This document shows, piece after piece, positions 6,073 through 49,389 of a stretch of 64,000 nucleotides of DNA (position 1 is the stretch's first letter; every line of letters begins with the position of its first letter). The stretch lies in contig NZ_JAELTQ010000012.1 in NCBI RefSeq assembly GCF_016428905.1, positions 1 to 64,000 on the forward strand, in the 5' to 3' direction. A program made the translations under genes and the position numbers. The notes under the pieces were generated by a model, which saw only the letters and a list, made by a program, of their open reading frames with translations, had not been told where the DNA came from and searched no databases. Source of the stretch: Dyella sp. ASV24. GTDB taxonomy: Bacteria; Pseudomonadota; Gammaproteobacteria; Xanthomonadales; Rhodanobacteraceae.

Positions 6073-8174
6073 GCCTTCTCGTCGACAAGCGCTTGCGTAT
6101 CGGCATCGTGGGTGCTGGCTATGTCGCGCGTTATCACATCGAGGCGCTGAAGCGGCTCGATGAGGTCGAGATTGTGGGTGTCTGCGATCTGGATCTCGAT
6201 GCGGCCAACAATCTCGCACAGACCTATGACATTGGCTGGGCCACGTCGGATCTGGCCGAACTGGGCAAGCGGCGTCCGCATGCCATCTTCATCCTGACAC
6301 CGCCGTCCAGTCATTGCGCCTTGACCTTGCGTGCGCTCGACATGGGGTGTCATGTATTCGTCGAGAAGCCCATGGCCGATTCGGTGGCCGAATGTGATGC
6401 GATGATTGCCAAGGCGCGCGAGAAAGGCCTTGTGCTGTCGGTCGATCATTCCGACCTGTTCGACCCCATGATCATGCGCGCGAAAGAGCTGGTTGCTGCC
6501 GGTGTCTGTGGCGACCTCATCTCGGTGGACGTGTGGCGCAGTTCGGACTATCCACCCTACGGTGGCGGCCCATTGCCGGGAATGGTGGCGCAGGGCTCGT
6601 ATCCATTCCGAGACCTGGGCGTGCATGGCCTCTATACGATGGAAGCCTTCCTGGGCGAGATCGCCCGGGTGGATATTCGCTACCGTTCCACCGGTCGATC
6701 GACCACATTGAAGTTTGATGAGTGGCAGGCGTTCGCCGAATGCGAGCAAGGCACGGGCCGCGTGATGCTGTCGTGGAATGTGCGGCCGATGCTCAATCGC
6801 ATTGTGGTGCAGGGCACGCGTGGCGTCATCGAAGTCGATCGCTTCCTGCAGGTGTGCCATGTGCGTCGCGTACTGCCAGGGCCCAAGTTCATCGGCATCG
6901 TCATGGGCGCATTCTTTGGCGCGGTGCGCGACGTGTTCCGGATTCCCTGGAACGTGTTGCGCTTCGCCACGGGGAGCTTGCGGCCGTCACCCGGTATCCA
7001 GTCCGGAGCCGAGGCATTTGCACGCGCACTGCTCGACAGCAAAGCGCCGCCAGTCAGTGCGGAGGATGGACGCCGCCCGATTGCCCTGATGGAAGCCGCT
7101 TGCCGTCAAGCCGACGAGGAACGCCGGCTAGAGCTGGAAGCGCGCATCGAGACATTGGAACCCGTGGATGCCCTGGTGACCGGTGCCTCGGGTTTCCTCG
7201 GTCGCACGTTGGTCAACGCTTTACGACGCAAAGGGCAGCGCGTTCGCGTGCTGGTACGTCGCGCCGATGCCCGGCTTGCCGCCATGGCGCAGCAGGTCGT
7301 GGTGGGTGATCTGGGTGATCCGCGTATTGTCGATCATGCGGTGCAGGGCGCACGCGTGGTTTATCACGTGGGCGCCGCGATGGGTGGTGGCCCGCGGGAG
7401 TTCGAGGCCGGCACGGTGTGGGGCACGCGAAACGTTGTCGATGCCTGCCTGCGTCACGGTACAGAAAACCTGGTTTACGTCAGCTCGATGAGCGTGCTTG
7501 ACCATGCCGGACGTAATCCGGCGGTGGCCATTGACGAGACATCAACGCTGGAGCCGCATCCGGATTGGCGCGGCAGCTACACACAGACCAAGTTGGCGGC
7601 GGAGACTTACGTGCGTGACGCCATTCGCGATCACGGCCTGCCGGCGGTCGTCATTCGGCCCGGCCAGATCATTGGGCCCGGTTCGGAAAAGGTCACGCCC
7701 AACGGCACATTGGGCATTGCTGGCCGATGGATCGCGGTGGGATCACCGTCGCAGACGTTGCCCTTGGTGTACGTGGATGACGTGGTGGACGCGTTGTTGC
7801 TGGCGGCGCAAACGCCTGGCGCCAAAGGGCAGGTGGTGCATGTGGTGGATCCCGCCATAGTCACGCAAGGCGAGTACCTGGACCGCGTGCGCCGCAAACG
7901 CAGAAAGGACTTGAAGTTGATGCGCTGGCCGACATGGTGGCTGCTCACCTTGGCGGTCGGCGTGGAGGGATTGGGGAAGGTGTTGCGCAGGAATGTGCCG
8001 TTGACGCGTTATCGGGTGCGTTCGTTGCGGCCGTTGGCGAATTTTGATCAGCGGGTGGCGAGGGATGTGTTGGGGTGGGAGCCGAGGGTGGGGTTGAGGC
8101 GGGGGATGGATGTGATGTTTGGGGGTGAGGTGGGGGTGTCGTCTGGGGTGGGGGCGACGGTGTCGGATAAGTAG
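6069..8174 (+). CDS. Gfo/Idh/MocA oxidoreductase fused to an NAD-dependent epimerase/dehydratase
   Basis: A 701-residue fusion of two sugar-nucleotide enzymes. Residues 1 to about 350 are a Gfo/Idh/MocA oxidoreductase, with GIVGAGYVARYH near residue 13 and the catalytic-loop motif FVEKPMA near residue 100. Residues about 365-680 are an extended SDR, with VTGASGFLGRTL near 369, YVSSMSV and the YTQTK catalytic Tyr/Lys pair near 503-507. These two functions usually sit on separate proteins, so the fusion suggests that an oxidised sugar intermediate passes between sites. The last 130 bp are unusually G-rich on this strand. The gene is coupled to the preceding glycosyltransferase and ends 30 bp before repeat R2. 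The substrate is unknown. Confidence 0.85.
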   Translation: MSLLVDKRLRIGIVGAGYVARYHIEALKRLDEVEIVGVCDLDLDAANNLAQTYDIGWATSDLAELGKRRPHAIFILTPPSSHCALTLRALDMGCHVFVEKPMADSVAECDAMIAKAREKGLVLSVDHSDLFDPMIMRAKELVAAGVCGDLISVDVWRSSDYPPYGGGPLPGMVAQGSYPFRDLGVHGLYTMEAFLGEIARVDIRYRSTGRSTTLKFDEWQAFAECEQGTGRVMLSWNVRPMLNRIVVQGTRGVIEVDRFLQVCHVRRVLPGPKFIGIVMGAFFGAVRDVFRIPWNVLRFATGSLRPSPGIQSGAEAFARALLDSKAPPVSAEDGRRPIALMEAACRQADEERRLELEARIETLEPVDALVTGASGFLGRTLVNALRRKGQRVRVLVRRADARLAAMAQQVVVGDLGDPRIVDHAVQGARVVYHVGAAMGGGPREFEAGTVWGTRNVVDACLRHGTENLVYVSSMSVLDHAGRNPAVAIDETSTLEPHPDWRGSYTQTKLAAETYVRDAIRDHGLPAVVIRPGQIIGPGSEKVTPNGTLGIAGRWIAVGSPSQTLPLVYVDDVVDALLLAAQTPGAKGQVVHVVDPAIVTQGEYLDRVRRKRRKDLKLMRWPTWWLLTLAVGVEGLGKVLRRNVPLTRYRVRSLRPLANFDQRVARDVLGWEPRVGLRRGMDVMFGGEVGVSSGVGATVSDK

Positions 8175-8203
8175 TGGGTGGTGCGCTTGGCGCGGTGGCT
8201 TTT

Positions 8204-9152
8204 GCTCCCTCTCCCCTTTGGGGAGAGGGTTGGGGTGAGGGGCGGGTGCTCGCCTTATCGTTTCATCTTTGCCCGTCATCCCTGCGTAGGCAGGGATCCA
8301 GTAGCGGTATCGCTCGGTTGTCGCGTTATGGCGGTCTGGCCGCTTACGCAGCGGGCGTTTCGACCTCCTGCCGGAGGCCGAGTCACTTTTCTTTTGCTGG
8401 CCCAAAAGAAAAGTAACCCAAAGAAAATGGCCATAGAGCCAACGCCTGCAGCATGACGATGGGATAAGCCCGAACGGGTGAGGAATCGTGTGGCTTGGCA
8501 ACCTCCACCTCTACACAGCGGGTACTCCGGAGCGCTTCGCAACGCGCCATGGCGCAGAGGACTTAAAGCAGGCTTCGCTACGCTTCCCTACCCCTGAGGC
8601 TAGGTAAAGCTAACGCTACGCTTCCCGACCGCTATGGAGAACTCGTCACCTAGCGGCATCGTCTTTCTCTTCTGCCCTGGCTTTAAGCACTTAGAGCAAG
8701 AGCAACGCGACCCGCCGCGATGCGATGTGCAGCGCAGCTGCACGAGCCGTCTGCTTTGTGCTTTTGATCTTCCGGGCCCCGTATGAGGCGGCGGGCGGGT
8801 GAAGATAAGGCCCGCAGGGGAATCGGCAGGGATGCCGATTCCTTTTCGTCGGGGCAGGAGCCCCGTCGAAAAGCCCGGAACCCGCGCGCGTACCTGGAGG
8901 GCGAAGCCCGGAAGGCGCCGATTCCGGGGGGCCCTTTCTTTGGGTTACTTTTCTTTGGGCAAGCAAAGAAAAGTGACTCGGCCTCCGGCAGGAGGTCGAA
9001 ACGCCCGCTGCGTAAGCGGCCAGGTCGCCCTAACGCGACAATCAAACACCGAGGCTCTGGACCCCAGCCTGCGCCGGGGTGACGGCTAAAGATGAAACGG
9101 TGGGGCTAGATTGACCCCTCACCCCAACCCTCTCCCCGAAGGGGAGAGGGAG
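8204..9152. repeat. Long intergenic repeat, copy R2, with its own inverted ends
   Basis: A gene-free element of about 950 bp. Its left part (8204-8885) is the reverse complement of R1. Its two ends, about 8204-8412 and 8935-9152, are inverted copies of each other, each carrying the ACTTTTCTTT / AAAGAAAAGT pair, a REP-like hairpin and the outermost GGGGAGAGGG module. This gives the architecture of a mobile, non-autonomous element with about 210 bp terminal inverted repeats. There is no transposase frame inside. Short in-frame stretches are not believed to be genes. Confidence 0.8.
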
Positions 9153-9170
9153 GAAAAAGCCCCGCGCCAC

Positions 9171-10346
9171 TCATGGCGCCGAATACTTCACCTGCCCCGT
9201 GCGACTCATCGCCGCCGCCTCCAGAATCCCACCCAACCGCTGGATATTTTCATCCCACCGAAACCGACTCGCATGCGTCGCAATCAGCGCGCCATCCCAC
9301 GACCTGCCCAGCGCATCAACCAACGCACCTTCCAACCCGATGCGATCATGCGCATTCACCAACACGCCCGCGTGCTCCGGCAACACTTCGGGAATGCCGC
9401 CGACGCGCGTGGCAACCACGGGTGTGCCGCAGGCCATCGCTTCGAGTACGACGTTCGGCACGCCTTCGTTGTGGCTGGGCAGGCACAGCAGGTCGGCAGC
9501 GCGGAACCAGTCGCCTAGCGCGAAGTGTTCGATGGCGCCAACCAGTCGTACGCGGTTCTGGCAGCCGAGGGCGGCGGCGCGCTGCAGTAGTGCTTCGCGG
9601 CAGGGGCCTGCGCCGATGAACAGCAGGTTGGCGTCGGGGTGGGTGAGTAGTACGCGAGGGAAAGCTTCGAGCAGGTCGAGGCAGCCTTTGGTGTCTTTCA
9701 GGTTGCCTACGTAGAGGATGATGCGTTCATCCTGCGGCAGTGACAGTTTTGTGCGGGCTTCGCTCAGCGAGCCGGGGTGGAACAGGTTGGGTTCGACGCC
9801 GTTGTAGATGACGTGCACACGCGAGGGATCGACGCCTAGTTCCACCACCTTGTCAGCCAATGCCTGGCTCACCGCTACGACGCCCTGGGCACCGCGCAGT
9901 GCGTGGCGGATCTGCGGTCGCAGAAGCGCCTGGGTCGCTTTGACGTTCAAATCAGTGCCGTGCACTTTGACCACATAGGGGATACCCAGGTGGCGCGCGA
10001 CCCAGCCAGCTGCGGCAGCGTCGGGGTAGGCCCAGCTCAGCAGCATGCAGTCGTACTGCGCGCGTCGCAGGCGGCGCAGTTTTTGAGTCAGCAGCGAGAT
10101 CAGCCAGAAGGCGGCGTGCATCGAGCGGCCGATCACCGGTGGATAGAAAAATACGAAGTGGTCGGTGTTGACGTTGTTGGTGCGGAATGGCGCCTGCTTA
10201 CGCCCAAAGCGCTCGCGGAAATCCACGGCGGTGAGCACATCTACCTCGTGCTCCCTGCCGAGTCGTTCGAACTGTTGGCGATTGAACGGGCTGCGCAGTG
10301 GGTCCCACGGCGAGGGAAACAGGTTGGTGAGTACCAGTACCTTCAT
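9171..10346 (-). CDS. Family 4 glycosyltransferase
   Basis: About 391 residues with the GT-B/GT4 pattern. The N-terminus is MKVLVLTNLFPSPWDPLRS, the middle has VVKVHGTDLN and VIYNGVEPNLFHPG, and the donor half has ILYVGNLKDTKG and HNEGVPNVVLEAMACGTPV with the conserved Glu. I chose the ATG at 10346, which overlaps the stop of the upstream gene as ATGA; starts at 10352 or 10361 are also in frame. It is the last gene of the long minus-strand run that begins with the assembly line. It probably adds one sugar to the lipid-linked repeat unit. Confidence 0.9.
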   Translation of the reverse strand: MKVLVLTNLFPSPWDPLRSPFNRQQFERLGREHEVDVLTAVDFRERFGRKQAPFRTNNVNTDHFVFFYPPVIGRSMHAAFWLISLLTQKLRRLRRAQYDCMLLSWAYPDAAAAGWVARHLGIPYVVKVHGTDLNVKATQALLRPQIRHALRGAQGVVAVSQALADKVVELGVDPSRVHVIYNGVEPNLFHPGSLSEARTKLSLPQDERIILYVGNLKDTKGCLDLLEAFPRVLLTHPDANLLFIGAGPCREALLQRAAALGCQNRVRLVGAIEHFALGDWFRAADLLCLPSHNEGVPNVVLEAMACGTPVVATRVGGIPEVLPEHAGVLVNAHDRIGLEGALVDALGRSWDGALIATHASRFRWDENIQRLGGILEAAAMSRTGQVKYSAP

Positions 10347-11464
10347 GCGCATGTTTCGCACTCCATGTCCAGGTACAGGCGTTCATAGCGCGCTGCCATG
10401 GCTTCCAGGGAACCGTGTTTCTCCACCCATGCGCGCGCCGCGTGTCCGTAGGTCGATGCGCGGTGTGGGTTGTCCAGTAGCGATAGCATGGCTTCGGCCA
10501 GGGCATCCGGATCGCCCGGCGGCACCAACTGGCCGGTGCGACCACTGTAGATGATCTCGCCATTGCCGCCGACGTCGGTGGCGACGATGGGCAGGGCGAC
10601 GGCGCAGGCTTCCAGCAGAGCCATGGAATAGCCCTCGCTGGCAGAAGACAGTACGAAGAGGTCCAGCCCTTGCAGCAGGTCGCGGACGTCGTTGCGATCG
10701 CCGAGGAAATGCACGGCATGACGCACACCTTCCTCTGTCGCGCATTGCTCCAGGTCGGCGCGCAGTTCGCCGTCACCGATCAGTAGAAGCGTGGCAGAGG
10801 GATGCTGAGCGTGAATCAGTCGAAACGCGCGGATCAGTCCGGCCTGGTCCTTGGTCCAGTTGAGGCGGCCCACGTTGCCGATGAGGAAGGCGTCGTCCGG
10901 AAGTCCAAGCATCTCCAGCAACTGTTGGCGCATAGGGCCGGACGCCGGCCGGAAACGCTCGACTGCGATGCCGTTGGGTACGACGCGCGTCATATCCTGG
11001 GGCAGCATGCCGCGTGAGATTCCGTTGCGGCGCGCTGCCTCGCAGACCGTCACGACGATGTCCGTACGCGCCAGCGAACGACGGTACAGCCACTCCTTGC
11101 GACCTGTGCGCTGTCCGGCACCCATGCCGTGACGTGTGTTGAGGGTGCGCAGCATGCGAAGGCCGCACGAAGCCAGCACGGCTTGGTAGTGCGCCACGGC
11201 GTTGTGCGTATGCAGGACATCGGTGGCATGGCGATCGATGGCCCAGCGCGCACGCGCCAAGGCGCGCAGGTCGACGCCGCGCCCTTTATTACAGGCGATC
11301 ACAGGAATGCCGGCGGCATCCAGTTCGTGCGCAAGCGAGCCGGTTTCGTAAAGGCAGACGACTTGGCACTGATGCCCTTGTTGCTGCTGCCGCTGCACCA
11401 GGTCGAGCACCATGCGCTCGAGGCCGCCACGGTTGAGGTTTTCGACCACGTGGGTGATGTTCAC
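10343..11464 (-). CDS. Family 4 glycosyltransferase
   Basis: A 373-residue GT4 enzyme. Visible features are HVVENLNRGGLERMVLDLV at the N-terminus, TLNTRHGMG and VVPNGIAVERFRP in the middle, and IGNVGRLNWTKDQ followed by LSSASEGYSMALLEACAVALPIVATDVGG in the donor domain. This pattern is common among exopolysaccharide and lipopolysaccharide sugar transferases. Its stop overlaps the start of the next glycosyltransferase. It starts 106 bp downstream of the CapK-like gene, a gap in which no feature was seen. Confidence 0.9.
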   Translation of the reverse strand: MNITHVVENLNRGGLERMVLDLVQRQQQQGHQCQVVCLYETGSLAHELDAAGIPVIACNKGRGVDLRALARARWAIDRHATDVLHTHNAVAHYQAVLASCGLRMLRTLNTRHGMGAGQRTGRKEWLYRRSLARTDIVVTVCEAARRNGISRGMLPQDMTRVVPNGIAVERFRPASGPMRQQLLEMLGLPDDAFLIGNVGRLNWTKDQAGLIRAFRLIHAQHPSATLLLIGDGELRADLEQCATEEGVRHAVHFLGDRNDVRDLLQGLDLFVLSSASEGYSMALLEACAVALPIVATDVGGNGEIIYSGRTGQLVPPGDPDALAEAMLSLLDNPHRASTYGHAARAWVEKHGSLEAMAARYERLYLDMECETCA

Positions 11465-11570
11465 GGGGAGTCGTACCTCTTTGCGCGGCGAGGTTGGGGC
11501 ATGGGCGTTCCCGCTTTCCCAAAGGGTGTTGGTAGCCGGTGATCGATCAGATGGATATGGACCATGGCGA

Positions 11571-12935
11571 TCAGGCTCCCGTCAGTTCCGACCGTGTGAC
11601 ACGGTGCTTGCCGCTTTGCGTGAGCGGGATGTCGTCTACGAAGCGATGGTCCAATGCCACCTCGTTGCCGAGTACCTTGGCGGTCTCGCGCTGGATGTAG
11701 GCGATGGAAGCGTCGTCGAAGCCGTCGCCGCGCACGATGGACAGCTCCAGTCGATGCAGCTCCCGCTGCACCAATTGGAAGCGCGTGAGCCCCGGCACAT
11801 CCTTGAGCATGTGCGGGAAGAACTCGCCCGGCAGGATGCGACCATCCGGCGTGCGGATGGCGTCGAGCACGCGGCCTTCCACCCGCTCCAGCAGCGGCAG
11901 GCCGCGCCCGCAGGGGCAGCTATAGGCCGTGGATGCGGTGGCGAGATCGCCGTTGAGGTAGCGGATGAACGGCATGCCGTAATTGGACAAGTCGGTGATC
12001 GCCACTTCGCCGGGGCCACTGGCGACGCGGCTGCGATCGGTGTCCAGCAGTTCGAGTGCCAGATGGTCGGCGTTGATGTGCAGGCCGTGGTGGTGTGCGC
12101 ATTCGGAAGCGATCAGCATGACCTCGCGGCAGCCGTAGGTGTTGTAGACCGGGCAGCCGAATGCGTTGGCGATGACGTCGCGTTGGTGGGGGTGAAGTGC
12201 CTCTGCAGCACCGATCACGGCGTCGGGACGATGCATCTTGCGTCCGGTCTCCACAATCCACTTGGCCAGCTGCGTGAGCGGGTTGACGTAGCCGACGATG
12301 ATGGCGGGGCGATAGCGATCGATGGCATCTGCATAAGTGGACAGGTTCGATTCCGTCATCTCGAAGCTGTTGAGCATGCGGCGGGCGAACAGTGCGTTGT
12401 AGACGCCATCCTTGAACTGATGCATCCGGCCCGGCGTGCCTACCGCGCCCGCCCATAGGTAGAGCGTGCGACGTCCGAGGCGTGAACCGGCCCAGCCGTA
12501 GCCGCGCCACATCACGGCCATGCGGCGCTCGTAGCTTTCATGTGTGTAGCCCAGCTTCAGCGGCTCGCCCGTCGAGCCGCCGGTGCGCTTGAAAAGCAGG
12601 CGGCCGCGCCAGGAGCTCGCCTGCAGGTCGTCGAAGTTCTCGCGGATGTCGGCCTTGGTCAGCACGGGCAGGCGCGCATAGTCGTCCATGCTGCGGATGT
12701 CTTCCGGAAGAATCCCCAGCTCGCGCCAGCGGCGGCGGTAGTAGGGCACTTCGCGATAGCAGTGGTCGATCAGTGTCTTGAGGCGCTGGAACTGCAGCGC
12801 GGCGAGCGCCTCCGGGGAGTACCACTGGTCGCGCTCGTAGGCATCAAGCCAGGATAGCGTGCTGCGGCGACGCAGGCCGCTTTCATAAGCCGGATAGAGC
12901 GCGCGGCGGAAAACCTGTTCGTACCAGTCACTCAT
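11571..12935 (-). CDS. CapK-like acyl/AMP ligase (phenylacetate-CoA ligase family)
   Basis: A 454-residue protein of the CapK/phenylacetate-CoA ligase branch of adenylate-forming enzymes. The phosphate-binding loop reads FKRTGGSTGEPLKLG around residues 112-126. Later motifs are YNTYGCREVM, PFIRYLNGDLA and a C-terminal IPLTQSGKHR that resembles the catalytic-lysine loop. A Cys-containing CPCGRG patch sits before the C-terminal subdomain. Relatives are common in capsule loci and lack a clear acceptor. Here it is 6 bp downstream of the Wzy-like gene and in the same run as the NRPS genes, so it may activate a carboxylic acid or the assembly-line product for transfer to sugar; that is inference. 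Confidence 0.85.
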   Translation of the reverse strand: MSDWYEQVFRRALYPAYESGLRRRSTLSWLDAYERDQWYSPEALAALQFQRLKTLIDHCYREVPYYRRRWRELGILPEDIRSMDDYARLPVLTKADIRENFDDLQASSWRGRLLFKRTGGSTGEPLKLGYTHESYERRMAVMWRGYGWAGSRLGRRTLYLWAGAVGTPGRMHQFKDGVYNALFARRMLNSFEMTESNLSTYADAIDRYRPAIIVGYVNPLTQLAKWIVETGRKMHRPDAVIGAAEALHPHQRDVIANAFGCPVYNTYGCREVMLIASECAHHHGLHINADHLALELLDTDRSRVASGPGEVAITDLSNYGMPFIRYLNGDLATASTAYSCPCGRGLPLLERVEGRVLDAIRTPDGRILPGEFFPHMLKDVPGLTRFQLVQRELHRLELSIVRGDGFDDASIAYIQRETAKVLGNEVALDHRFVDDIPLTQSGKHRVTRSELTGA

Positions 12936-12941
12936 GGCGAA

Positions 12942-14207
12942 TCATCCTTCCGTCCTCAGCAGGATGCTGACCAGCACGAACAGCCCGGCAATGCTGCCGA
13001 TGGCGGCGGGAACCCAGCGCATGCCGCTTTCGCTCATGCTGAAGGAGGGCATGTCGCCGATGCGTTCGCGCGCGCCCAGGTAGAAGCCCGTGACGATGGC
13101 CAGCACCACGTACAACACGATCATGTAGCTGCGACTGAGGAAGAACGCGCAGGTGAACATGCCGCACAACGACAGCAGCAGCGTCAGCGCCATGGGCCGC
13201 TCGATGCTCCAGGCGGCGTGGCGCTCGGGGTCGGTGATGGGATCGGGCTTAAGGCGCAATACGGTCGCCACCATCCAGAACGTGTAGCCGATCAGCATCA
13301 GCCACAATACGTAGCCGACGAAGCCGGTTTCCGCCAGCACCAGCACGAACGAGTTGTGTGCGGTGAGCGGGTTGTAATCGGTGAAGTTGCCGGGGCCCAC
13401 GCCAAAAAGGGGGTGGGATTTGAACATCTGCAAGCCTTCGTACCAGGCGTCCACGCGGCCACTGGCCGATTCCTCGCCGGCATCGAGCTCCTGCATGCGT
13501 GAGGAAAGCAATTTCATCACCGCAAGGCCCGCGGCACCCAGTACGCCAGCGACGATGACGCCGCGGCGATACCAGATGTAACCGCCGGCGACGACCAGTA
13601 CACCGAGCATCGCACCGCGCGAATTGGTGAGGCGTACGCCGTAGAGCAGAGTCAGGATGCAGGCCAGCCAGAACAGCTTGCCGAAGAAGCCTGCGCGCTT
13701 CAGCAACAGGCAGGCCATGGGAAATACCGAGACGAACAACATGCCCAGGTCATTGGGGTCGTTGAAGATGCCCACGTACTGGATGCGCCCATCATCGCCA
13801 AGCGGAATGCCGGTCCAGCCGACGCCGGTGTTTGCCTGGCCGATGCCATGCACGGCCAATACGGTGGCGCACATCACCATCACCGCCATCAGCACCAGGA
13901 TGCGCCGCTGGGTATTGCACGCTGCCGCGATCATGAAAAAGGTGAGCACGACAGGGCCGAACTTGCCGAGCTGATCCTTCACGCCACCGACCCAGCCATT
14001 GGCGACCTCTGAGAACATCAGTACGGCGAAGAAGGCCAGCAGGATGATGAACTGCGGCGCACGCGGCCGGCGCGCGCCGGAGGCGAGCCACGCGGCGAAG
14101 GCTAATGCCAGCACGATCGGCAGCACGGGCACGCCAAGCAGCGCCGGTATGTACTCCTGCGGCCTGACGATGGTCAGGACGACGTAGCAGAGGATCAGTG
14201 GGAACAT
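12942..14207 (-). CDS. Wzy/O-antigen ligase-like membrane protein
   Basis: A 421-residue polytopic membrane protein with about ten or more hydrophobic segments. A Wzy_C-type region is present: the stretch around residues 255-300 contains GRVDAWYEGLQMFKSHPLFG, then VGPGNF and AHNSFVLVLAETG, with the conserved His and Gly residues of O-antigen ligases and polymerases. The N-terminus with IVRPQEY resembles ligases found in exosortase-associated polysaccharide loci. It would polymerise or ligate lipid-linked repeat units at the periplasmic face. It is separated from the deacetylase by an unusual palindromic spacer and lies 6 bp before the CapK-like gene. Confidence 0.85.
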   Translation of the reverse strand: MFPLILCYVVLTIVRPQEYIPALLGVPVLPIVLALAFAAWLASGARRPRAPQFIILLAFFAVLMFSEVANGWVGGVKDQLGKFGPVVLTFFMIAAACNTQRRILVLMAVMVMCATVLAVHGIGQANTGVGWTGIPLGDDGRIQYVGIFNDPNDLGMLFVSVFPMACLLLKRAGFFGKLFWLACILTLLYGVRLTNSRGAMLGVLVVAGGYIWYRRGVIVAGVLGAAGLAVMKLLSSRMQELDAGEESASGRVDAWYEGLQMFKSHPLFGVGPGNFTDYNPLTAHNSFVLVLAETGFVGYVLWLMLIGYTFWMVATVLRLKPDPITDPERHAAWSIERPMALTLLLSLCGMFTCAFFLSRSYMIVLYVVLAIVTGFYLGARERIGDMPSFSMSESGMRWVPAAIGSIAGLFVLVSILLRTEG

Positions 14208-14211
14208 GGCT

Positions 14212-14477
14212 GAGCCTGTTTATGACCTTCGCGCAGCCCGCGCCGGGAGCTGTTTGCTTGCAGGCCAAGGAAGAGGGAAGGAGTGTATGTCGATACACGA
14301 CTGAGCGATGACGCTGGCCTGTGGGCAAACAGACCCGGCCCGGAGGGTTGTCCTTGAGTGGCCGCCATGCGGCAGCGCGCGGCTTGACCTGACAGCCAGT
14401 CAGGCGCTGCGCCACGCACTACCACCTGGCGGCCACTCAAGGACAACGCGGGCTGCGCGAAGGTCATAAACAGGCTC
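14212..14477. repeat. Nested palindromic intergenic element
   Basis: A perfect 31 bp inverted repeat pairs 14212-14242 with 14447-14477. A second perfect 21 bp pair joins 14347-14367 to 14427-14447. The right arms are contiguous, while the left arms are split by 104 bp. That insert has its own imperfect 18 bp arms (CTGTTTGC..CAGGCCA) and a small GTGTAT-GTCG-ATACAC hairpin. The innermost part holds a CCTGAC-AGCCA-GTCAGG hairpin. The right arm covers the last codons of the upstream deacetylase gene. Confidence 0.9.
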
Positions 14478-15558
14478 TCTCATCCGTTGTAGCCAAGTGG
14501 GCGGGCGTCGGATAGCCGACCACGCCGGGCATGGCCAGCAATGCGGCGAACCAGGCTTTGCCGTAATAGCGCTCGACGGCGATGCGATACAGCGAGTAGC
14601 GATTGTCGGCCGGTCGCGGATTGGTGCCACTGATGTAGCTGCAGGCCAGATCGAACCCTGCATCGCGCGTTACCTCGATGACCTGTCGGTCGAACGCGCG
14701 ATTGCTGCCGACCGGATAGGACATCAGCAGCGGCATTGGCCCGAGTTCGCGAAGCAAGGCGTTGCGGGAGTCGAGAACCTCGCGCTCCAGTTCCTCGCGC
14801 GGCAGCTTGGAGAGCATCCAGTGATTGACGCCGTGCGAGCCGATCTCCAGGCCGGCGGCGCGCATTTCGCGCAGCTGGTCCCAGTTCATCGGGCGGCAGT
14901 CCGCAGGCCGCGCATGTTCGGAGGGCATCTGCCACTCATCTTCCAGGCGGCGGATCATGGCTGCCTGTGTCAGCGCGCTGATCTCTTTCATGTTGTCGAG
15001 TACTTGGCCTGCCAAGGCGCGGCGTTCGTCGCGCGTCGCTGGCATCGGCACATCCATGCCGAGCTCGGGAAGTTCCAGTCGTGATGCATCGCTGAGCAGG
15101 ATCATGTGCACCAGCCAGTCGTACGCGTACGGGCGACCGCTGTCGATGTGGCCAGTGGAGATGAAGAAGGTGGCCGGGACGCCGAGTTCCTTCAGAATGG
15201 GATAGGCAATGCGGTAGTTGTCGTCGTAACCATCGTCGAAAGTGATGACTACCGCATCGGGCGGCAACGGGTGGCCCGCGTTGATGGCGGCAGCCACGTC
15301 GCTGAGGCGCATGGGCCGATAGCGTTCGCGCACCAGCGTCATCTGTTCGCGGAACTCTTCCGGCGTGGTGCTGACCAGTTCCATGTCGAACTCGTACTGC
15401 TCCGGGTCGGGTACCGGCATGACGCGGTGGTAGGCAAGGATGCGCAGGTCTTTCTGCCACCACGCGCGCATCTTCTGCAGCGGGTTGAGCAGGCCGGCGC
15501 TGTAGCACAGTTCGCCCAGTCGTTCACGGATGCCAGTGTGCGGCGTCTGGCTCACCAT
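14464..15558 (-). CDS. NodB-type polysaccharide deacetylase, membrane/periplasmic type
   Basis: About 364 residues from the ATG at 15558. A much longer open frame exists upstream but is the shadow of the glycosyltransferase gene, whose stop overlaps this start by 7 bp. The CE4 motifs are ILAYHRVMPVP, VITFDDGYDDNY, ATFFISTGHID and the His-containing EIGSHGVNHWMLSKL, with a late MSYPVGSNRAFD. This is the PgaB/IcaB-like arrangement with a long insert between motifs. It probably deacetylates an amino sugar of the glycan. Its last codons fall in the right arm of the palindrome at 14447-14477, so the end of the protein may vary among relatives. Confidence 0.88.
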   Translation of the reverse strand: MVSQTPHTGIRERLGELCYSAGLLNPLQKMRAWWQKDLRILAYHRVMPVPDPEQYEFDMELVSTTPEEFREQMTLVRERYRPMRLSDVAAAINAGHPLPPDAVVITFDDGYDDNYRIAYPILKELGVPATFFISTGHIDSGRPYAYDWLVHMILLSDASRLELPELGMDVPMPATRDERRALAGQVLDNMKEISALTQAAMIRRLEDEWQMPSEHARPADCRPMNWDQLREMRAAGLEIGSHGVNHWMLSKLPREELEREVLDSRNALLRELGPMPLLMSYPVGSNRAFDRQVIEVTRDAGFDLACSYISGTNPRPADNRYSLYRIAVERYYGKAWFAALLAMPGVVGYPTPAHLATTDERACL

Positions 15559-43957: not shown

Positions 43958-44626
43958 TTACGCCCAGTTGTTGTCGTCAGATCCGCTATCGTCGAAGTCG
44001 TCAGACGAACTGAAATCGTCGTTCGAAGCGAAATCGTCGCGGTTGCGATCGTTGTCGAGGCGATCGTTGTTGTTGTCGTCGTAGTAGGTGTTGTTCTCGG
44101 TGATGTTCTCGACCACGTTCGGTTGCCCGCCGCCGAAGAAGCCACCGCCATGGTGGCCGCCCATCAGGCTTTCGATACCGTCGAACAGGAACATGCCGCC
44201 TGCCACGCCCGCAGCGGTGGTGGCCGCCTGTGACAGGAAGCTGGGCGCCGCCGCCGGAGCGGCTTGCGCGGGAGCGCCACCGAACAAGCGTTCGCGCCAA
44301 CCGGGTGCAGCCTGCTGGGGCATGGGCTGTTGCGGCACGGGCGGAGGCACGGTGCCCCAGGCCGAAGACGCGGGCTGGCCGCCAAGGAAACTGCCGCCAC
44401 CCTGCTGTGATGCGAGTTGGGATTGGAGCTGGGCGATCTGGGTCTTGGCAGCATCAAGTGCCTGTTGCTGCAACAGGCTGCGCTGTACGAGCAGGTATAG
44501 CGCATCGGGTTGTGCGGCCAGGCGCTGGCGGATCAAGGCGTCGGCTTGCGGGTCCTTGGCCACGCTGCCGGCGGCGACGAGGCGCTGGAGGAAATCATCG
44601 AGTAGTTGTTGTTCCTGCGGGGTCAT
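43958..44626 (-). CDS. DUF2076-type protein
   Basis: About 222 residues from the ATG at 44626; the frame runs to 44725. It starts MTPQEQQLLDDFLQRLV and has PDALYLLVQRSLLQQQALDAA, hallmarks of the DUF2076 family. A coiled-coil-like Gln-rich helix spans about residues 45-75, then a Gln/Pro/Ala/Gly-rich linker, a hydrophobic Gly-rich stretch (AATTAAGVAGGMFLFDGIESLM) and a C-terminal Asn/Asp/Ser-rich acidic tail of about 55 residues. Its function is unknown. It lies downstream of lanM with about 165 bp between, on the same strand, which may be a chance neighbourhood. Confidence 0.88.
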   Translation of the reverse strand: MTPQEQQLLDDFLQRLVAAGSVAKDPQADALIRQRLAAQPDALYLLVQRSLLQQQALDAAKTQIAQLQSQLASQQGGGSFLGGQPASSAWGTVPPPVPQQPMPQQAAPGWRERLFGGAPAQAAPAAAPSFLSQAATTAAGVAGGMFLFDGIESLMGGHHGGGFFGGGQPNVVENITENNTYYDDNNNDRLDNDRNRDDFASNDDFSSSDDFDDSGSDDNNWA

Positions 44627-44791
44627 GACAAACAAATCTCCGTGGGACGGCAAGTGACAATCACTGTGGCGGCCGTTTTTTCCGGCGTGCAGTGCCGGAA
44701 GTGTGCCCTCCACACGTGACATCAAGGGGCAAGCCGCTGTCGTTTTCCTTGCAGTCAGCCAATCCGCAGGATGTTTCGATGGTGCGCCTCG

Positions 44792-47629
44792 TTAGTTGCG
44801 TCCCTTCATCCGTTCCAGCAAGAGGGGCGAGGGCAGTCGGCATTCGGGGTGCATGCGATTGAAGCTGTGCACCGCGCCGGCCAGCCCGGTCATGAGCCCC
44901 GGCGTGAAGGCGGCGCGCGTCATGCCACCGATGACACCGCCGTGCTCCTCAATGGCGGAGACCACCTGGGACGTGGTTTCGTCCACGTCGCTGACGCAAC
45001 CTTCGGGGTCGGCACTCGCTGCGCGCACGAACAATTCCCAAAGTGAGAAATCGCCGTGGCAAAGAGTGTGGTTGGCGCCCCAGCGGTTGCGGGAGGCCGC
45101 GACAGCGCGACGCAGGGTGACTTGATAGCGCGGGTCCCCGGTGCGGGCAAATAGATCCGCTGCGGCCAGGCCGATACCGACGCTGCCGTTGCACCAGGTA
45201 TGGAAGCTTTTTACGCGGGTCAGTTGGCGCGCATCGAGCCAGTTTCCCAGCTCCTCATCGAATAATGAGTCCTGGAATGCGAACGCCTGTTGAGCGAGCG
45301 TCTGCCAGCGACGACGATCATCCGGTGTGCCCGTTTCCGTCAACGCCAGTCGCGCCAACGCCCAGCCGATGCCTGTGGCACCGTGCGCGAATCCGCCGAT
45401 AGGGTCGTTGAAAACCAGCGTATGCCAGCGTGCACCGCGCTCGTCCACCATGGCTTGCGCCTCAATATGGCTGGCAGCCTTTGCCGCGAGCGCGTGCCAG
45501 CGCGGATCGCCGGTAGCATCGGCCAGGTGGCAAAGAGGAATGATGCTGCCGCTGGTGCCGTCGAGATAGTCGAGCAGGCGATCTTCATCGAACCCTTTGG
45601 CGTCGAGCATGCCGGCGCAATGTTCGGCTCGCTGAAGCCATTCGGGGTGGCCCGTCAGGTCGTGGAGCGCCAGCCAGGTCCATATGCGGCCGCCGAAGCC
45701 GCTGAGTCCGCCGAAGGTGCCCGGTGGTTCCGCCTGGTCGAGCGCCTGCATCACGCGCAGGCTGCCGTCGACGATACGGTCGAGTCCATCCACGGCGTTT
45801 GCGCGCCCGCGCGTGACTTCGTGCTGGTAGCCCACCAGCGCAAACAGCACACCGCCCAACCCGAAGTAGCTGTCCGCCTGCAGGGGCTGGACCGTCCACC
45901 CTGCATTGGTGGTTTCCGGCGTGATCCAGGTGACCGAGTCATCGTCGCCACGCACGGACAGTTTGATCAGCCGCTCCACTGCGGAGGCCGCGAGGGTTCG
46001 GCGGCGTGCGTCGAGGTCACGGGTATGGGGATGCCTGGCGAAATACAGGATGTCACCCTGTTTTTCGGATTCGTCCGCGCCAACATTGAGTTCGGTGACG
46101 ACGAGTGCGCTGCGTATGGTCATTTCCTCCAGCTCGACGCGCATGGATCGCCAGTCCGCCAGCGCGGCATCGATGCGATCCCGGCCTAATGGCGAAACGA
46201 ACACGGGGATATCACCGAAGCGCAGGTCGTGAATCTCCCGCATGATTTCTTCATGGGATGACGGCGCAATGGGCACGACCAGGGCGTTGCGCGCGAACAG
46301 ATCGCGGGCGCGTTCGATGGCTTTGGCTTCGTCATGCAGGGATGCCGGGTGCCACAGCATGCGCCCGAGCTCACTGTAGGCCTGGGTGGGACGGCGAATG
46401 TCGCGAATCAGGCAGCCTTGGAACGCATCGATGAGCGGCGTTAGCTCGCCACGGCTGTCCATGTCCCTGAAAGTTGCGCTGGCTTCGAGAAAGCCCTCAC
46501 TGATGTGGTTCCAGTACAGCGCAACTTGCGGATTAGCGCTTGGGTGATTTTGCGCGACGTTGATGTCGACACTGACGATTTCCACGTGCGCATCGGTCGT
46601 GCCTTCATTGGCGATGATGGGTGCGCTGACTTGTGGCTGCTGGTTGGGCAGGGCGCCGGCGGCTGACATGTCTACGCCATCGAAACCAAGCGCTGGCGCG
46701 CGGTAAGGCACCATGCCCGTGCGCAGGACCGAGCTGCGCACAATCGATTCGGCCAGGTCGTGGGCCTTCCCGTAACCCGACGGTGCAGCCTCGGGTAATG
46801 GGGAGAACAGACTTTCCACATCGATGACCAACGGCGTTGGGCCGTGCGCAATCAAGTTTTCGAGGTGGATGTCGGTGCCGCCCAGCAGGCGCATCACGGC
46901 CAGCCAATGGCCCAGTCGGAGGTAGAACAGGCGAAGCTCGTCGTCACCCTCGCAGTAGCGGTGCTCGATGAATTCGGTCCAGCCGTAATCATCTCGCTCA
47001 ACGACGCGAGGCACACGAATGCGCGCGTCGGATGTGAAGGTGGCGGCCAGCAATCGATCGAGTACGGCGTCCACGCGCAGCGAGCGAGGTTTGTACATGG
47101 CAATGCCATGCTCAAAGGTCAGTCGGGCGACGGCTTGCCCGCCGGCATGCAGGTCGCCATGGCCAAGGCCCAAAGCGACGAGTCGTCCTGGTGGACGCCC
47201 GATGAGCGAGGCAATGGCGGCGCGATCGTGCACCAGTCGTTGGACGATCGCTTCGATCGCTTTTTCCTGCTGATGGAGCGAAGTTTCCAGTCGCTCCAGT
47301 AAGGGTGGATAGCGACGATCCAGATGCGCGGCGAACTCGGGGCGGCGACTCCGCTCGACGAAATCATCGAATCCATCGTCATCACCGCTTGCCGTCAACT
47401 CGCCAGCCAATTTGGCAGCATGTAATTCGAGGAGAAGCACTCGGTTGAGCTTCAGCCTTGCCGCATCATTCAAGGCTTGCGAGGCCGTGGAGAGAACCAG
47501 TGCGGATTCGCCCTCCCGCAGCTGAGCGGCCATCCCTGCGAGAAATGTTTCCAGGCGGGTTCGCGAGGGCGAGGTGAAGTGTTCGATGATTGCGGCAAAG
47601 GATTTGGTGGATGCGGTATCAGCCATCAT
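44792..47629 (-). CDS. lanM: Class II lanthipeptide synthetase LanM
   Basis: A 945-residue bifunctional synthetase. The N-terminal kinase-like dehydratase (about 90-480) phosphorylates Ser/Thr in the precursor and eliminates phosphate; visible pieces are HGDLHAGGQAVARLTFEHG, YKPRSL, FIEHRYC and DIHLENLIAHGPTPLVIDVE. The C-terminal cyclase (about 590-940) has the zinc ligands Cys near 812 (SFHTWCNGSVG) and Cys-His near 857 (NHTLCHGD), with GGFAHGATGIGWAL repeats. Length is usual for LanM. Its precursor gene ends 86 bp upstream. No transporter or protease gene (LanT) is beside it, which is unusual. LanM enzymes are uncommon in this bacterial order. Confidence 0.95.
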   Translation of the reverse strand: MMADTASTKSFAAIIEHFTSPSRTRLETFLAGMAAQLREGESALVLSTASQALNDAARLKLNRVLLLELHAAKLAGELTASGDDDGFDDFVERSRRPEFAAHLDRRYPPLLERLETSLHQQEKAIEAIVQRLVHDRAAIASLIGRPPGRLVALGLGHGDLHAGGQAVARLTFEHGIAMYKPRSLRVDAVLDRLLAATFTSDARIRVPRVVERDDYGWTEFIEHRYCEGDDELRLFYLRLGHWLAVMRLLGGTDIHLENLIAHGPTPLVIDVESLFSPLPEAAPSGYGKAHDLAESIVRSSVLRTGMVPYRAPALGFDGVDMSAAGALPNQQPQVSAPIIANEGTTDAHVEIVSVDINVAQNHPSANPQVALYWNHISEGFLEASATFRDMDSRGELTPLIDAFQGCLIRDIRRPTQAYSELGRMLWHPASLHDEAKAIERARDLFARNALVVPIAPSSHEEIMREIHDLRFGDIPVFVSPLGRDRIDAALADWRSMRVELEEMTIRSALVVTELNVGADESEKQGDILYFARHPHTRDLDARRRTLAASAVERLIKLSVRGDDDSVTWITPETTNAGWTVQPLQADSYFGLGGVLFALVGYQHEVTRGRANAVDGLDRIVDGSLRVMQALDQAEPPGTFGGLSGFGGRIWTWLALHDLTGHPEWLQRAEHCAGMLDAKGFDEDRLLDYLDGTSGSIIPLCHLADATGDPRWHALAAKAASHIEAQAMVDERGARWHTLVFNDPIGGFAHGATGIGWALARLALTETGTPDDRRRWQTLAQQAFAFQDSLFDEELGNWLDARQLTRVKSFHTWCNGSVGIGLAAADLFARTGDPRYQVTLRRAVAASRNRWGANHTLCHGDFSLWELFVRAASADPEGCVSDVDETTSQVVSAIEEHGGVIGGMTRAAFTPGLMTGLAGAVHSFNRMHPECRLPSPLLLERMKGRN

Positions 47630-47715
47630 TCGCTCGACGCCGGTGCATATAGTGAAAGTTCATGGAGAAATCGGCGTGCAACCGATCGGCGGTTGCACGC
47701 CGACTCAGTCACGCA

Positions 47716-47928
47716 TCAACAGCAGGCGCAACCACCGCCCGTGTGGATCGAGCAGGTCGAGCACGTCGTTCCGACCGAGGTGATCAAACTCTTGACGGTC
47801 TTGTCGCTCGTCAACGCGGCCTCGGTAGCTCCAGCTCCCTGGATGTAGAGCGGACCGGCTGGATTGGCGTGACCGCCAAAGCTGTCTTCACCATTCAGCC
47901 AGCTGGAAACGATGTCATCGAATTGCAT
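47716..47928 (-). CDS. lanA: Class II lanthipeptide precursor peptide
   Basis: A 70-residue peptide with a GGAGTT ribosome site before the ATG at 47928. The leader has acidic and hydrophobic residues (MQFDDIVSSWLNGEDSFGGH..), and the C-terminus, TTCSTCSIHTGGGCACC, has five Cys and six Ser/Thr in 17 residues, exactly the material for (methyl)lanthionine rings. A preceding TVKSLITSVG may be the cleavage region; GG occurs earlier, in FGGH. In the same frame an upstream extension to 48102 also exists but has a GTG and no ribosome site. The gene lies directly before lanM on the same strand. Ring pattern and cleavage site are not derivable from sequence. Confidence 0.85.
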   Translation of the reverse strand: MQFDDIVSSWLNGEDSFGGHANPAGPLYIQGAGATEAALTSDKTVKSLITSVGTTCSTCSIHTGGGCACC

Positions 47929-48504
47929 AGCAGAACTCCATGTTGGTTGGACAAGTTGATTTCGGGCCCCATCCCCTGGAGATGAGTGCCCGCTCCCACA
48001 TGCACACTTGCAGCACGGTACGGGGCTGCCACAACAAGCCAATGGATAGCTAACGACATTGCCCCCAGGTGCGGTGTGCGCGACGAGAGTGGCTCGCGCC
48101 ACTCAAGTTCCTCGTGCGCCGGCGTGCTTTCCATGGTGGCCGGCGCATGGCACGCCGGCCTATATCGAGGAGAGGGCGTGACGATGACGTGAGCTGATCG
48201 AGCGTGCGGCTTGGGTTCCGCGATCCTCGCCATGATGTGACGCACTGCCTGATGTCTGGCGGAAAATGCTGCAATGGTGAACGGCTTTGAGCGTTGAGCC
48301 GGGAAGACCTTCCTGCGGGGTGATCTCTTCACCTCATGAAGCGCTCGCAGCGAAAGTCGCTGGCCTTGAGGCGCTTGAGGCTGAGGCGAGGGGCATCACT
48401 GCTGCCGGCATCTGTCAGCAATGTGGCGAGTGCGCTCCCGAGGCAGTGGGTTTCGCAAGGGTGTGCAGGCATCATGTGGTCATTGCCTCGTTGCGGCCTT
48501 CCCC
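47929..48504. other. Intergenic region with hairpins
   Basis: No credible gene; it holds promoters for the lanthipeptide unit (minus) and the exporter (plus). Two dyads are clear: GAGTGG-CTCGCG-CCACTC at 48086-48103 and a 10 bp pair GCCGGCGTGC (48118-48127) with GCACGCCGGC (48150-48159). Their role, attenuation or regulation, is unknown. No promoter could be assigned with confidence. Confidence 0.5.
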
Positions 48505-49389
48505 ATGTCCCCACGCACCACCCTTGGCCCGGTCGCGCTTGCGATCGGCGCGTTGTTGATCAGCATGGTTTCGTATCAGTGCGGCGCTTCCTTGGCCAAA
48601 CACTTGTTTCCGGCCGTGGGTGCGCAGGGCGCAACGGCGTATCGCCTGGGGCTTAGTGCGTTGATCCTGCTGCTTTGGCGGCGGCCGTGGCGGCGCTTGG
48701 GTGGAGTCAGCTGGCGTTCGCTGTGGGCTTATGGGCTCGCCATGGGTGCGATGAACCTTGTGTTCTATATGTCGCTGCGGACCATTCCGCTGGGCATTGC
48801 TGTGGCGTTGGAATTCACCGGGCCGCTGGCGCTGGCGGTGTTCAGTTCGCGTCGCCTGGTCGACTTCGTGTGGATCGCTTTGGTGGTCGCGGGCCTGCTC
48901 CTGTTGTTGCCGTTGCGTGGCGAGGTGCAGACCCTGGATCCAGTGGGCGTGGGCTATGCACTCGCGGCGGGTCTTGGTTGGGCGTTGTATATCGTGTTTG
49001 GCAAGAAGGCTGGCGAGGCGCATGGCGGCGATGCGGTTACCTGGGGTACGTCGATCGGTGCACTGGTGGCGATTCCCTTTGGTGTAGCCCACGCGGGTGG
49101 CGCATTGCTGTCGCCTTCGCTGTTGCCTTATGCGCTCGGCGTGGCAGTGCTCAGCTCCGCGCTGCCTTATTCACTGGAGATGGTGGCGTTGACGCGGTTG
49201 CCGGCACGCACGTTCAGCACCTTGTTGAGCCTCGAGCCGGCCGTCGCGGCACTGGCGGGCGCCGTGCTGTTGAGCGAGCGCCTGAGTCTGCTGCAGTGTC
49301 TGGCGATCGTCGCCATCATCGTGGCCGCTGCCGGAACAGCCTTGAGCGTGCGTCGCCCGGCCGTGAGCGAGCCGCCGCTGGTGAACTGA
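48505..49389 (+). CDS. rhtA: EamA-family exporter, RhtA-like
   Basis: A 294-residue membrane protein with ten predicted helices in two EamA halves. The start MSPRTTLGPVALAIGALLISM fits RhtA-type threonine/homoserine exporters; later motifs are IPLGIAVALEFTGPLALA and SLEPAVAALAGAVLLSERLS. The frame extends upstream to 48421 but adds a Cys/Arg-rich non-membrane piece. It probably exports small amino acids or related metabolites across the inner membrane. Name by similarity; substrate is inference. Confidence 0.85.
   Translation: MSPRTTLGPVALAIGALLISMVSYQCGASLAKHLFPAVGAQGATAYRLGLSALILLLWRRPWRRLGGVSWRSLWAYGLAMGAMNLVFYMSLRTIPLGIAVALEFTGPLALAVFSSRRLVDFVWIALVVAGLLLLLPLRGEVQTLDPVGVGYALAAGLGWALYIVFGKKAGEAHGGDAVTWGTSIGALVAIPFGVAHAGGALLSPSLLPYALGVAVLSSALPYSLEMVALTRLPARTFSTLLSLEPAVAALAGAVLLSERLSLLQCLAIVAIIVAAAGTALSVRRPAVSEPPLVN

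What the first reader, a model, noticed from the sequence alone, without database searches (positions are those of the whole stretch)
44792..47928. Class II lanthipeptide locus in a gammaproteobacterium lacking LanT
Seen: LanM with zinc ligands and an adjacent precursor with five Cys and six Ser/Thr in a 17-residue end. Not seen: an ABC transporter with C39 protease, immunity genes or a regulator; neighbours on both sides are unrelated. Either leader removal and export use distant genes, or the product acts inside the cell. LanM systems are rare in this order.
Basis: partly seen in the sequence, partly recalled or inferred. Interest (0 to 1): 0.75.

Follow-up and report, generated by a model that had tools for sequence, protein, structure and literature searches.

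The report
Two-gene lanthipeptide cassette without exporter
A soil bacterium carries a compact pair of genes, one for a small peptide and one for the enzyme predicted to staple it into rings; the pair belongs to an already described antibiotic-like peptide family, in which the genes expected for trimming and exporting the peptide are usually missing next door.

Summary
LanM (44792-47629, -) and its precursor (47719-47928, -; five Cys and six Ser/Thr in the last 17 residues) are intact and adjacent, and no C39 domain was found on the contig. But the kind is known: the precursor is Pfam DUF6229. A Dyella member was made in E. coli with its LanM, solved by NMR and named rhodanocin (PMC9576775). 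The core here does not fit that ring pattern. LanM is not rare: 44 of 197 sampled family genomes. My additions: the locus is a ~3.6 kb insertion holding only lanA, a hairpin and lanM, absent at the same site in five congeners. In 98 DUF6229-LanM loci with at least 3 kb on both sides (gammaproteobacteria, actinobacteria, myxobacteria), no C39 domain was found within 5 kb; 13 have an adjacent SyrD/PvdE-type ABC exporter, 4 another ABC ATPase. Ten of 38 DUF6229-bearing family genomes show no C39 domain in a transporter-sized frame. Best reading: a solitary class II lanthipeptide module whose leader removal and export rely on unlinked host genes. Modification and export of this peptide are inferred, not shown. 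New member of a known kind.

The parts
47719..47928 (-). lanA, 70-aa DUF6229 precursor (stop codon 47716-47718)
   Evidence: Pfam DUF6229 63.4 bits; GGAG 7 nt before the ATG; 96% identical in G124
47809..47928 (-). putative leader, residues 1-40, with the family motif W..G.....G..NPAGPLY..G....EAAL
   Evidence: W10 in 99%, P-A-G in 100% and L27 in 98% of 109 unique precursors; exact leader end unknown
47719..47769 (-). C-terminal 17 residues of the predicted core, TTCSTCSIHTGGGCACC (5 Cys, 6 Ser/Thr)
   Evidence: sequence; resembles TTCSxxxGCACC ends in L079, L080, L145, L148, L150; core boundary inferred
47671..47703 (-). RNA hairpin between lanA and lanM, two 14-nt perfectly complementary arms, likely attenuator or lanA mRNA stabiliser
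   Evidence: fold z -3.4, 1 of 200 shuffles as good; z below -2 at the same place in 48 of 58 gammaproteobacterial, 20 of 29 actinobacterial and 2 of 4 myxobacterial loci folded; function inferred
44792..47629 (-). lanM, class II lanthionine synthetase, 945 aa
   Evidence: TIGR03897 513.6 bits; solved relatives LicM2 6st5 and CylM 5dzt
46196..47311 (-). LanM dehydratase domain (DUF4135, residues 107-478)
   Evidence: 294.7 bits; invariant K180, D253, H255, N258, D270, E272 in 16 LanMs
44846..45886 (-). LanM cyclase domain (LANC_like, residues 582-928), predicted zinc ligands C813, C857, H858
44780..48384 (.). acquired cassette (about 3.6 kb) holding only lanA, hairpin and lanM plus about 450 bp upstream
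   Evidence: empty site in G113, G187, G134, G090, G064; boundaries from G113 (L124), where 15 bp separate the two matching flanks; against the other four the left edge shifts by up to about 20 bp and the right edge by up to about 65 bp
48505..49389 (+). right flank: RhtA/EamA-type exporter gene, core genome, not part of the cassette
   Evidence: NCBIfam RhtA 344.9 bits, just under its cut-off of 354; matched in 19 of 20 genus genomes
43958..44629 (-). left flank: DUF2076 gene, not part of the cassette
   Evidence: Pfam DUF2076 180 bits; next to RhtA in 5 congeners without the cassette

Best explanation
This is a class II lanthipeptide module of the DUF6229 (rhodanocin-related) family, gained as a two-gene cassette. 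LanM binds the conserved NPAGPL leader of LanA, phosphorylates and dehydrates Ser/Thr in the C-terminal part, and its LanC domain adds Cys thiols to give up to five (methyl)lanthionine rings. A strong hairpin after lanA probably keeps lanA transcript in excess over lanM. Leader removal and release are done by host genes outside the locus: an unlinked housekeeping or secreted protease and an unlinked exporter. The product is probably an antibacterial or signalling peptide acting outside the cell. Shown: family membership, intact and conserved LanM, purifying selection on LanM, cassette boundaries, no linked C39 found, hairpin. Inferred: modification of this peptide, ring number, hairpin role, protease, exporter, activity.
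For: DUF6229 and LanM scores. A Dyella DUF6229 precursor produced with its LanM in E. coli has four dehydrations and three rings, with an NMR ring map; the C39 protease LahT150 did not cut it and AspN was used (PMC9576775, sections 9 and 15 read, other passages). DUF6229 LanMs form one clade, 110 of 115 rows, support 99 (FastTree); 106 of those rows have a DUF6229 precursor beside them and the other four start at a contig edge. dN/dS of LanM 0.061. Empty site in five congeners. Two further close pairs share little but lanA-lanM: L076/L081 a single block, L066/L067 one long block plus short scattered ones. No C39 domain within 5 kb in 98 loci, nor in any other fetched DUF6229 stretch searched; the method finds the known case L115. 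13 of 13 loci of one clade have a SyrD/PvdE-type exporter beside LanM, which suggests that such products leave the cell. Proteases outside the cluster are documented for class III/IV lanthipeptides (AplP, SflL) and for klebsazolicin and a microcin C analogue (TldD/E) (PMC10885120, passages); two TldD/E-type genes are present here.
Against: No transcript, mass-spectrum or activity data for this peptide. LanA's own dN/dS (0.093) rests on 2 nonsynonymous and 6 synonymous changes. No homologue of the SyrD/PvdE-type exporter was found in this genome at E<=1e-20 (a search without a positive control), so the exporter is unidentified. No neighbour points to the protease. TldD/E also matched in 10 of 14 control genomes, so its presence says little. 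In 38 of 109 precursors the motif does end in GG, and the Dyella one has a possible double-Gly too, so a C39 route is not excluded. The exporter-bearing clade has another core type than the window's. The window's place inside its LanM clade is weakly supported.
Confidence: 0.77

Rival explanations
1. Export and leader removal are done in trans by one of the genome's own C39-ABC exporters (C110 with HlyD partner, or C11 in a radical-SAM peptide cluster).
For: Two full-length C39-ABC exporters exist in this genome; 28 of 38 DUF6229 genomes of the family have a C39 match in an open frame of at least 600 aa. 38 of 109 precursors have GG after PAGPL.
Against: Ten of 38 DUF6229 genomes have no such frame, among them G021, a one-contig genome rated 100% complete with two DUF6229 precursors and no adjacent ABC match. 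The C11 exporter sits beside its own radical-SAM maturase. The window leader has QG, not GG, after PAGPLY; the C39 protease LahT150 failed on the Dyella relative.
Confidence: 0.12
2. The modified peptide is not exported; it acts inside the producer or is released on lysis.
For: No exporter, immunity or regulator gene in this cassette, and no ABC match within 1.5 kb in 81 of 98 loci.
Against: One clade has an exporter beside lanA-lanM in 13 of 13 loci. The AspN-trimmed product of the Dyella relative inhibits Klebsiella pneumoniae, though weakly (126 uM). Absence of linkage is not absence of export.
Confidence: 0.1
3. A decaying relic of a larger lanthipeptide cluster that has lost its transporter.
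For: Transporter absent; the cassette is patchy, 3 of 18 genomes of the genus in the sample.
Against: LanM dN/dS 0.061, near that of three neighbours (0.025-0.053); conserved residues kept; lanA-lanM without a transporter is the common state over 98 loci, and the inserted segment itself holds only these two genes.
Confidence: 0.01

Closest known systems
Rhodanocin (LanII of Dyella sp. 333MFSha, WP_043693394.1; DUF6229) (PMC9576775)
   Same: DUF6229 precursor modified by a LanM in Rhodanobacteraceae; leader removed in the laboratory with a commercial protease
   Different: Rhodanocin's rings are Thr6-Cys11, Cys8-Ser14 and Thr12-Cys23 with Dhb at 18; the window core has 5 Cys and lacks the Ser/Thr expected two residues after the one that follows CxxC (own comparison). 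L106-type precursors do meet the rhodanocin spacing. The Dyella precursor sequence itself was not seen.
Lysobacter DUF6229 lanthipeptides (PMC11451712)
   Same: same precursor family; 21 of 27 unique class II precursors there are DUF6229
   Different: the precursors there fall into six network families; the figures were not seen, so which is closest is unknown
LanM-LanT class II lantibiotics such as cytolysin and lichenicidin (CylM, LicM2 structures)
   Same: same synthetase family
   Different: no linked C39 LanT found, no double-Gly leader end, no LanP or immunity gene among the neighbours scanned
Class III/IV lanthipeptides and TldD/E-matured RiPPs with unlinked proteases (PMC10885120, passages)
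   Same: leader removed by a host protease not encoded in the cluster (the feature proposed here)
   Different: other synthetases and leaders; only an analogy

Membership tests
Class II lanthipeptide system | LanM with fused dehydratase (DUF4135) and LanC cyclase domains | tested here: met
Class II lanthipeptide system | zinc ligands of the cyclase and catalytic residues of the dehydratase | tested here: met
   C813, C857, H858, K180, D253, N258, D270, E272 invariant in 16 LanMs; which residues matter is recalled from CylM; alignment to LicM2
Class II lanthipeptide system | adjacent precursor with leader and Ser/Thr/Cys-rich core | tested here: met
Class II lanthipeptide system | dehydration and thioether rings in the product | not testable with these tools
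   shown in print for a Dyella relative only
Class II lanthipeptide system with LanT | linked C39-ABC exporter and double-Gly leader | tested here: not met
   no C39 match on the contig; leader reads ...PAGPLYIQG... (sequence)
DUF6229 precursor family (PF19740) | profile score above Pfam's cut-off | tested here: met
   63.4 against 25 bits
Rhodanocins sensu stricto | ring-forming residue spacing TxCxxCTxSxxxTxxxxC | tested here: not met
   window core compared by eye with the positions given in PMC9576775
Two-gene DUF6229-LanM cassette (described here) | lanA-lanM alone between host flanks, empty site in relatives | tested here: met
   two further pairs

The most novel reading that the evidence does not exclude
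DUF6229-LanM pairs are self-sufficient, context-free modules that move between soil bacteria of three phyla as just a precursor, a hairpin and a synthetase, and whose product needs no dedicated exporter, leader peptidase or immunity gene at all: it either acts inside the producer or is released at lysis or predation, with export added secondarily in one Luteibacter/Dyella clade.
Probability: 0.12. Interest if true: 0.6.

Novelty: new member of a known kind. Interest (0 to 1): 0.33.

Why it matters
The core predicts a ring pattern unlike the solved rhodanocin, in a family with one reported anti-Klebsiella peptide. More generally, the usual lack of linked LanT, protease and immunity genes over three phyla makes a clear question testable: which host genes finish and release a class II lanthipeptide when the cluster does not encode them. 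At least one published survey used transport machinery in classifying class II clusters (PMC12715929, passage), so such solitary pairs may be undercounted.

Tried and rejected
Rejected: chance ORF pairing; relic; a linked but missed C39 transporter; the RhtA/EamA neighbour as dedicated exporter: it is present in cassette-free congeners and disrupted in cassette-bearing G124. A Cys-rich in-frame extension upstream of lanA (47929-48102): 6 differences to G124 fall 4/0/2 on codon positions 1/2/3, so no sign of coding.

Led nowhere: the paper search (0 papers); the listings showed no title or abstract start on LanT-less DUF6229 clusters (PMC11165876 on Luteibacter, which mentions lanthipeptides, was not opened); no terminal repeats at the cassette edges stand out. 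Conserved-neighbour searches: in 29 actinobacterial loci the only shared gene clusters were LanM, ORFs overlapping it or lanA, and one scattered cluster in 5 loci; in 25 loci of the named Xanthomonadales set, the same plus synteny, mostly of five Stenotrophomonas-type loci; eight myxobacterial loci share neighbours, being close relatives. 'rhodanocin' occurs in 1 held paper and 'DUF6229' in 2; the library is open-licence PMC only.

Rows left out: for the tree, rows under 800 aa (among them the split LanM of L091) and duplicates, 115 kept; of 107 unique DUF6229-LanM loci, 98 with at least 3 kb on both sides were counted for transporters, 94 of the 107 having at least 5 kb; 16 of the 107 were left out of the hairpin count by a sequence pattern marking LanM coding close behind lanA. 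LanM loci of G092, G095 and G032:C12 and a sub-cut-off DUF6229 match in G028 were not fetched. Of 409 confirmed relatives the genome scan returned the best 80.
Full report
What is there. The window is G000:C33 of a 5.6 Mb, 635-contig genome. On the minus strand a 70-aa precursor (47719-47928) precedes a 945-aa LanM (44792-47629), 89 nt apart. LanM scores 513.6 bits to TIGR03897 and carries DUF4135 and LANC_like domains. The precursor scores 63.4 bits to Pfam DUF6229 (cut-off 25) and nothing in NCBIfam. A GGAG lies 7 nt before its ATG. Between the genes is a 17-bp hairpin, z -3.4 against 200 shuffles, one of which folds as well.

It is a known kind. A DUF6229 precursor of Dyella sp. 333MFSha was produced with its LanM in E. 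coli, gave four dehydrations and three rings, had its rings mapped by NMR, inhibited Klebsiella pneumoniae at 126 uM after AspN trimming and was named rhodanocin; the authors think DUF6229 covers at least two groups with different ring patterns (PMC9576775; sections 9 and 15 read, Discussion passage). In Lysobacter, 21 of 27 unique class II precursors are DUF6229 (PMC11451712, passages). The window's core does not fit the rhodanocin spacing, while L106-type precursors do (my comparison by eye). The most similar ends are TTCSxxxGCACC types in other Rhodanobacteraceae, Luteimonas and Lysobacter; the window and its sister G124 are about five residues longer in between. Against this likeness, the LanM tree does not group the window with those loci: it lies beside L100, L096/L101 and L103 at weak support, and its nearest LanMs apart from G124 (93%) are 66% identical or less among the 15 aligned.

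Distribution. In a sample of 197 family genomes, 38 have DUF6229 and 44 have LanM (41 over the cut-off); all 38 have both. In the order, 44 of 398 have DUF6229. In the class sample of 369, two pass the cut-off, both of this order (the window's own and G219), and one from another family matches below it. In the genus, 3 of 18 sampled genomes have it. A scan of named genomes with the LanM alignment returned 80 of 409 confirmed relatives, from Dyella, Luteibacter, Lysobacter, Luteimonas, Stenotrophomonas, Tahibacter, Rhodanobacter, Corallococcus, Streptomyces, Kitasatospora, Streptacidiphilus, Amycolatopsis and a few more. Five precursors checked (three actinobacterial, one Corallococcus, L106) all pass Pfam's DUF6229 cut-off (5 of 5), so Pfam's model already reaches beyond gammaproteobacteria.

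A two-gene cassette. In five congeners (G187, G113, G134, G090, G064) RhtA and DUF2076 sit 284-288 bp apart without lanA or lanM. In the other congeners matched DUF2076 was not found within the 1.5 kb fetched beside RhtA, so they do not inform on the site. Alignment to G113 puts the insert at about 44780-48384, in place of 15 bp; its left edge is 12 bp beyond the LanM stop. Two further close LanM pairs behave alike: between L076 and L081 the only homologous block in 20 kb is lanA-lanM with about 40 and 170 bp of margin, and between L066 and L067 the one long block is lanA-lanM, with short scattered matches elsewhere. Other pairs of the 17 compared share long synteny, as expected for vertical inheritance.

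No linked exporter or protease, as the usual state. Of 107 unique DUF6229-LanM loci, 98 have at least 3 kb on both sides: 68 gammaproteobacterial (one mislabelled Bacillus), 27 actinobacterial, 3 myxobacterial. None has a C39 domain match within 5 kb (94 of the 107 hold at least 5 kb on both sides); the same search found the C39-ABC of L115, a locus without DUF6229. Thirteen have an ABC exporter of cyclic-peptide type beside the pair (for L068: PRK10522 365.6 bits and TIGR01194 283.3 bits, both below their cut-offs; the names SyrD, PvdE and YojI are recalled), all in one clade with CSSCTASRP or CSGCTASRP cores. Four more have another ABC ATPase near (L082, L084, L088, L159), without C39 in Pfam; L159 has two ATPase stretches and may be cytosolic. 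Detection rests on phmmer at 1e-15 with three query transporters, and of C39 on two query domains, so remote relatives can be missed. No other neighbour is widely shared.

C39 in trans. The genome has two C39-ABC genes (C110 beside an HlyD homologue; C11 beside a radical-SAM maturase nearest to cyclophane-forming ones) and one FapD-like C39 without ABC domain. Of the 38 DUF6229 genomes, 28 have a C39 match in a frame of at least 600 aa and 10 do not (G012, G021, G028, G049, G053, G081, G101, G112, G136, G168); frame length is my stand-in for an ABC fusion. Of those ten, G012, G021, G028, G081 and G168 also lack an adjacent ABC match; G021 is a single 5.5 Mb contig rated 100% complete, whereas G168 is only 86% complete. 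So a C39 exporter is not a general requirement, though it may serve in some strains.

Constraint. Against G124, LanM has dN/dS 0.061; three neighbours have 0.025-0.053. LanA has 2 nonsynonymous and 6 synonymous differences in 70 codons, too few for a firm ratio. In 100-bp bins, DNA identity is 95-99% from 47701 to 48100 against 81-93% over lanM; one bin outside the cassette (44601-44700) reaches 100%, so high identity alone is not special to lanA. Among 109 unique precursors P-A-G is invariant, W10 is 99% conserved, and 17 have five Cys in the last 22 residues, as here.

Mechanism. Dehydration and cyclisation by LanM follow from the family and the Dyella precedent. A hairpin at the same place, mostly of different sequence, has z below -2 in 48 of 58 gammaproteobacterial, 20 of 29 actinobacterial and 2 of 4 myxobacterial loci (60 mononucleotide shuffles each; 16 short-gap loci not folded); an attenuator or stabiliser role is inferred. 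For the protease I favour an unlinked host enzyme, as reviewed for AplP, SflL and TldD/E (PMC10885120, passages); two TldD/E-type genes exist here, but also in 10 of 14 control genomes. Export is inferred from the exporter-bearing clade and from the antibacterial activity of the relative.

In print. One survey saw likely long-range transfer between Actinobacteria and Proteobacteria in its subfamily E (PMC11251773, passages); whether that is DUF6229 I could not tell. A class II survey classified clusters by core peptide, transport machinery and LanM (PMC12715929, passage). The listings showed no paper describing the LanT-less state of DUF6229 pairs across phyla, but subscription journals and supplements are not held, and listings were read only as titles and abstract starts.

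Verdict. Observation confirmed; interpretation partly right. New member of a known kind, with a family-level regularity (solitary lanA-lanM cassettes) worth a note.

Noticed in passing
L113 (G000:C11), 9164-15340: Separate RiPP-like cluster in the same genome: radical-SAM/SPASM maturase nearest to cyclophane-forming YhhB/XyeB (below cut-off) followed by a C39-ABC exporter.
   Followed up: partly
L112 (G000:C110), 7881-11335: HlyD-type adaptor with a C39-ABC exporter; its substrate was not sought.
   Followed up: no
L197: Contig titled Bacillus subtilis SK7B5 carries a DUF6229-LanM locus grouped with Stenotrophomonas in the LanM tree: probably a contaminated assembly.
   Followed up: no
G124, beside its copy of the cassette (L140, L141): RhtA appears disrupted (two overlapping partial matches, one reported with a stop) in this cassette-bearing sister genome.
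   Followed up: no
window 47701-48100: Promoter-lanA stretch is 95-99% identical to G124, against 81-93% over lanM; cause unknown (regulatory constraint or recombination).
   Followed up: partly
L091 (G084:C2:220583-223359): LanM is split into two neighbouring frames of 489 and 514 aa; frameshift or true split enzyme not resolved.
   Followed up: no
L093, L109: Long-branched DUF6229 LanMs whose precursors end in CFG rather than CC.
   Followed up: no
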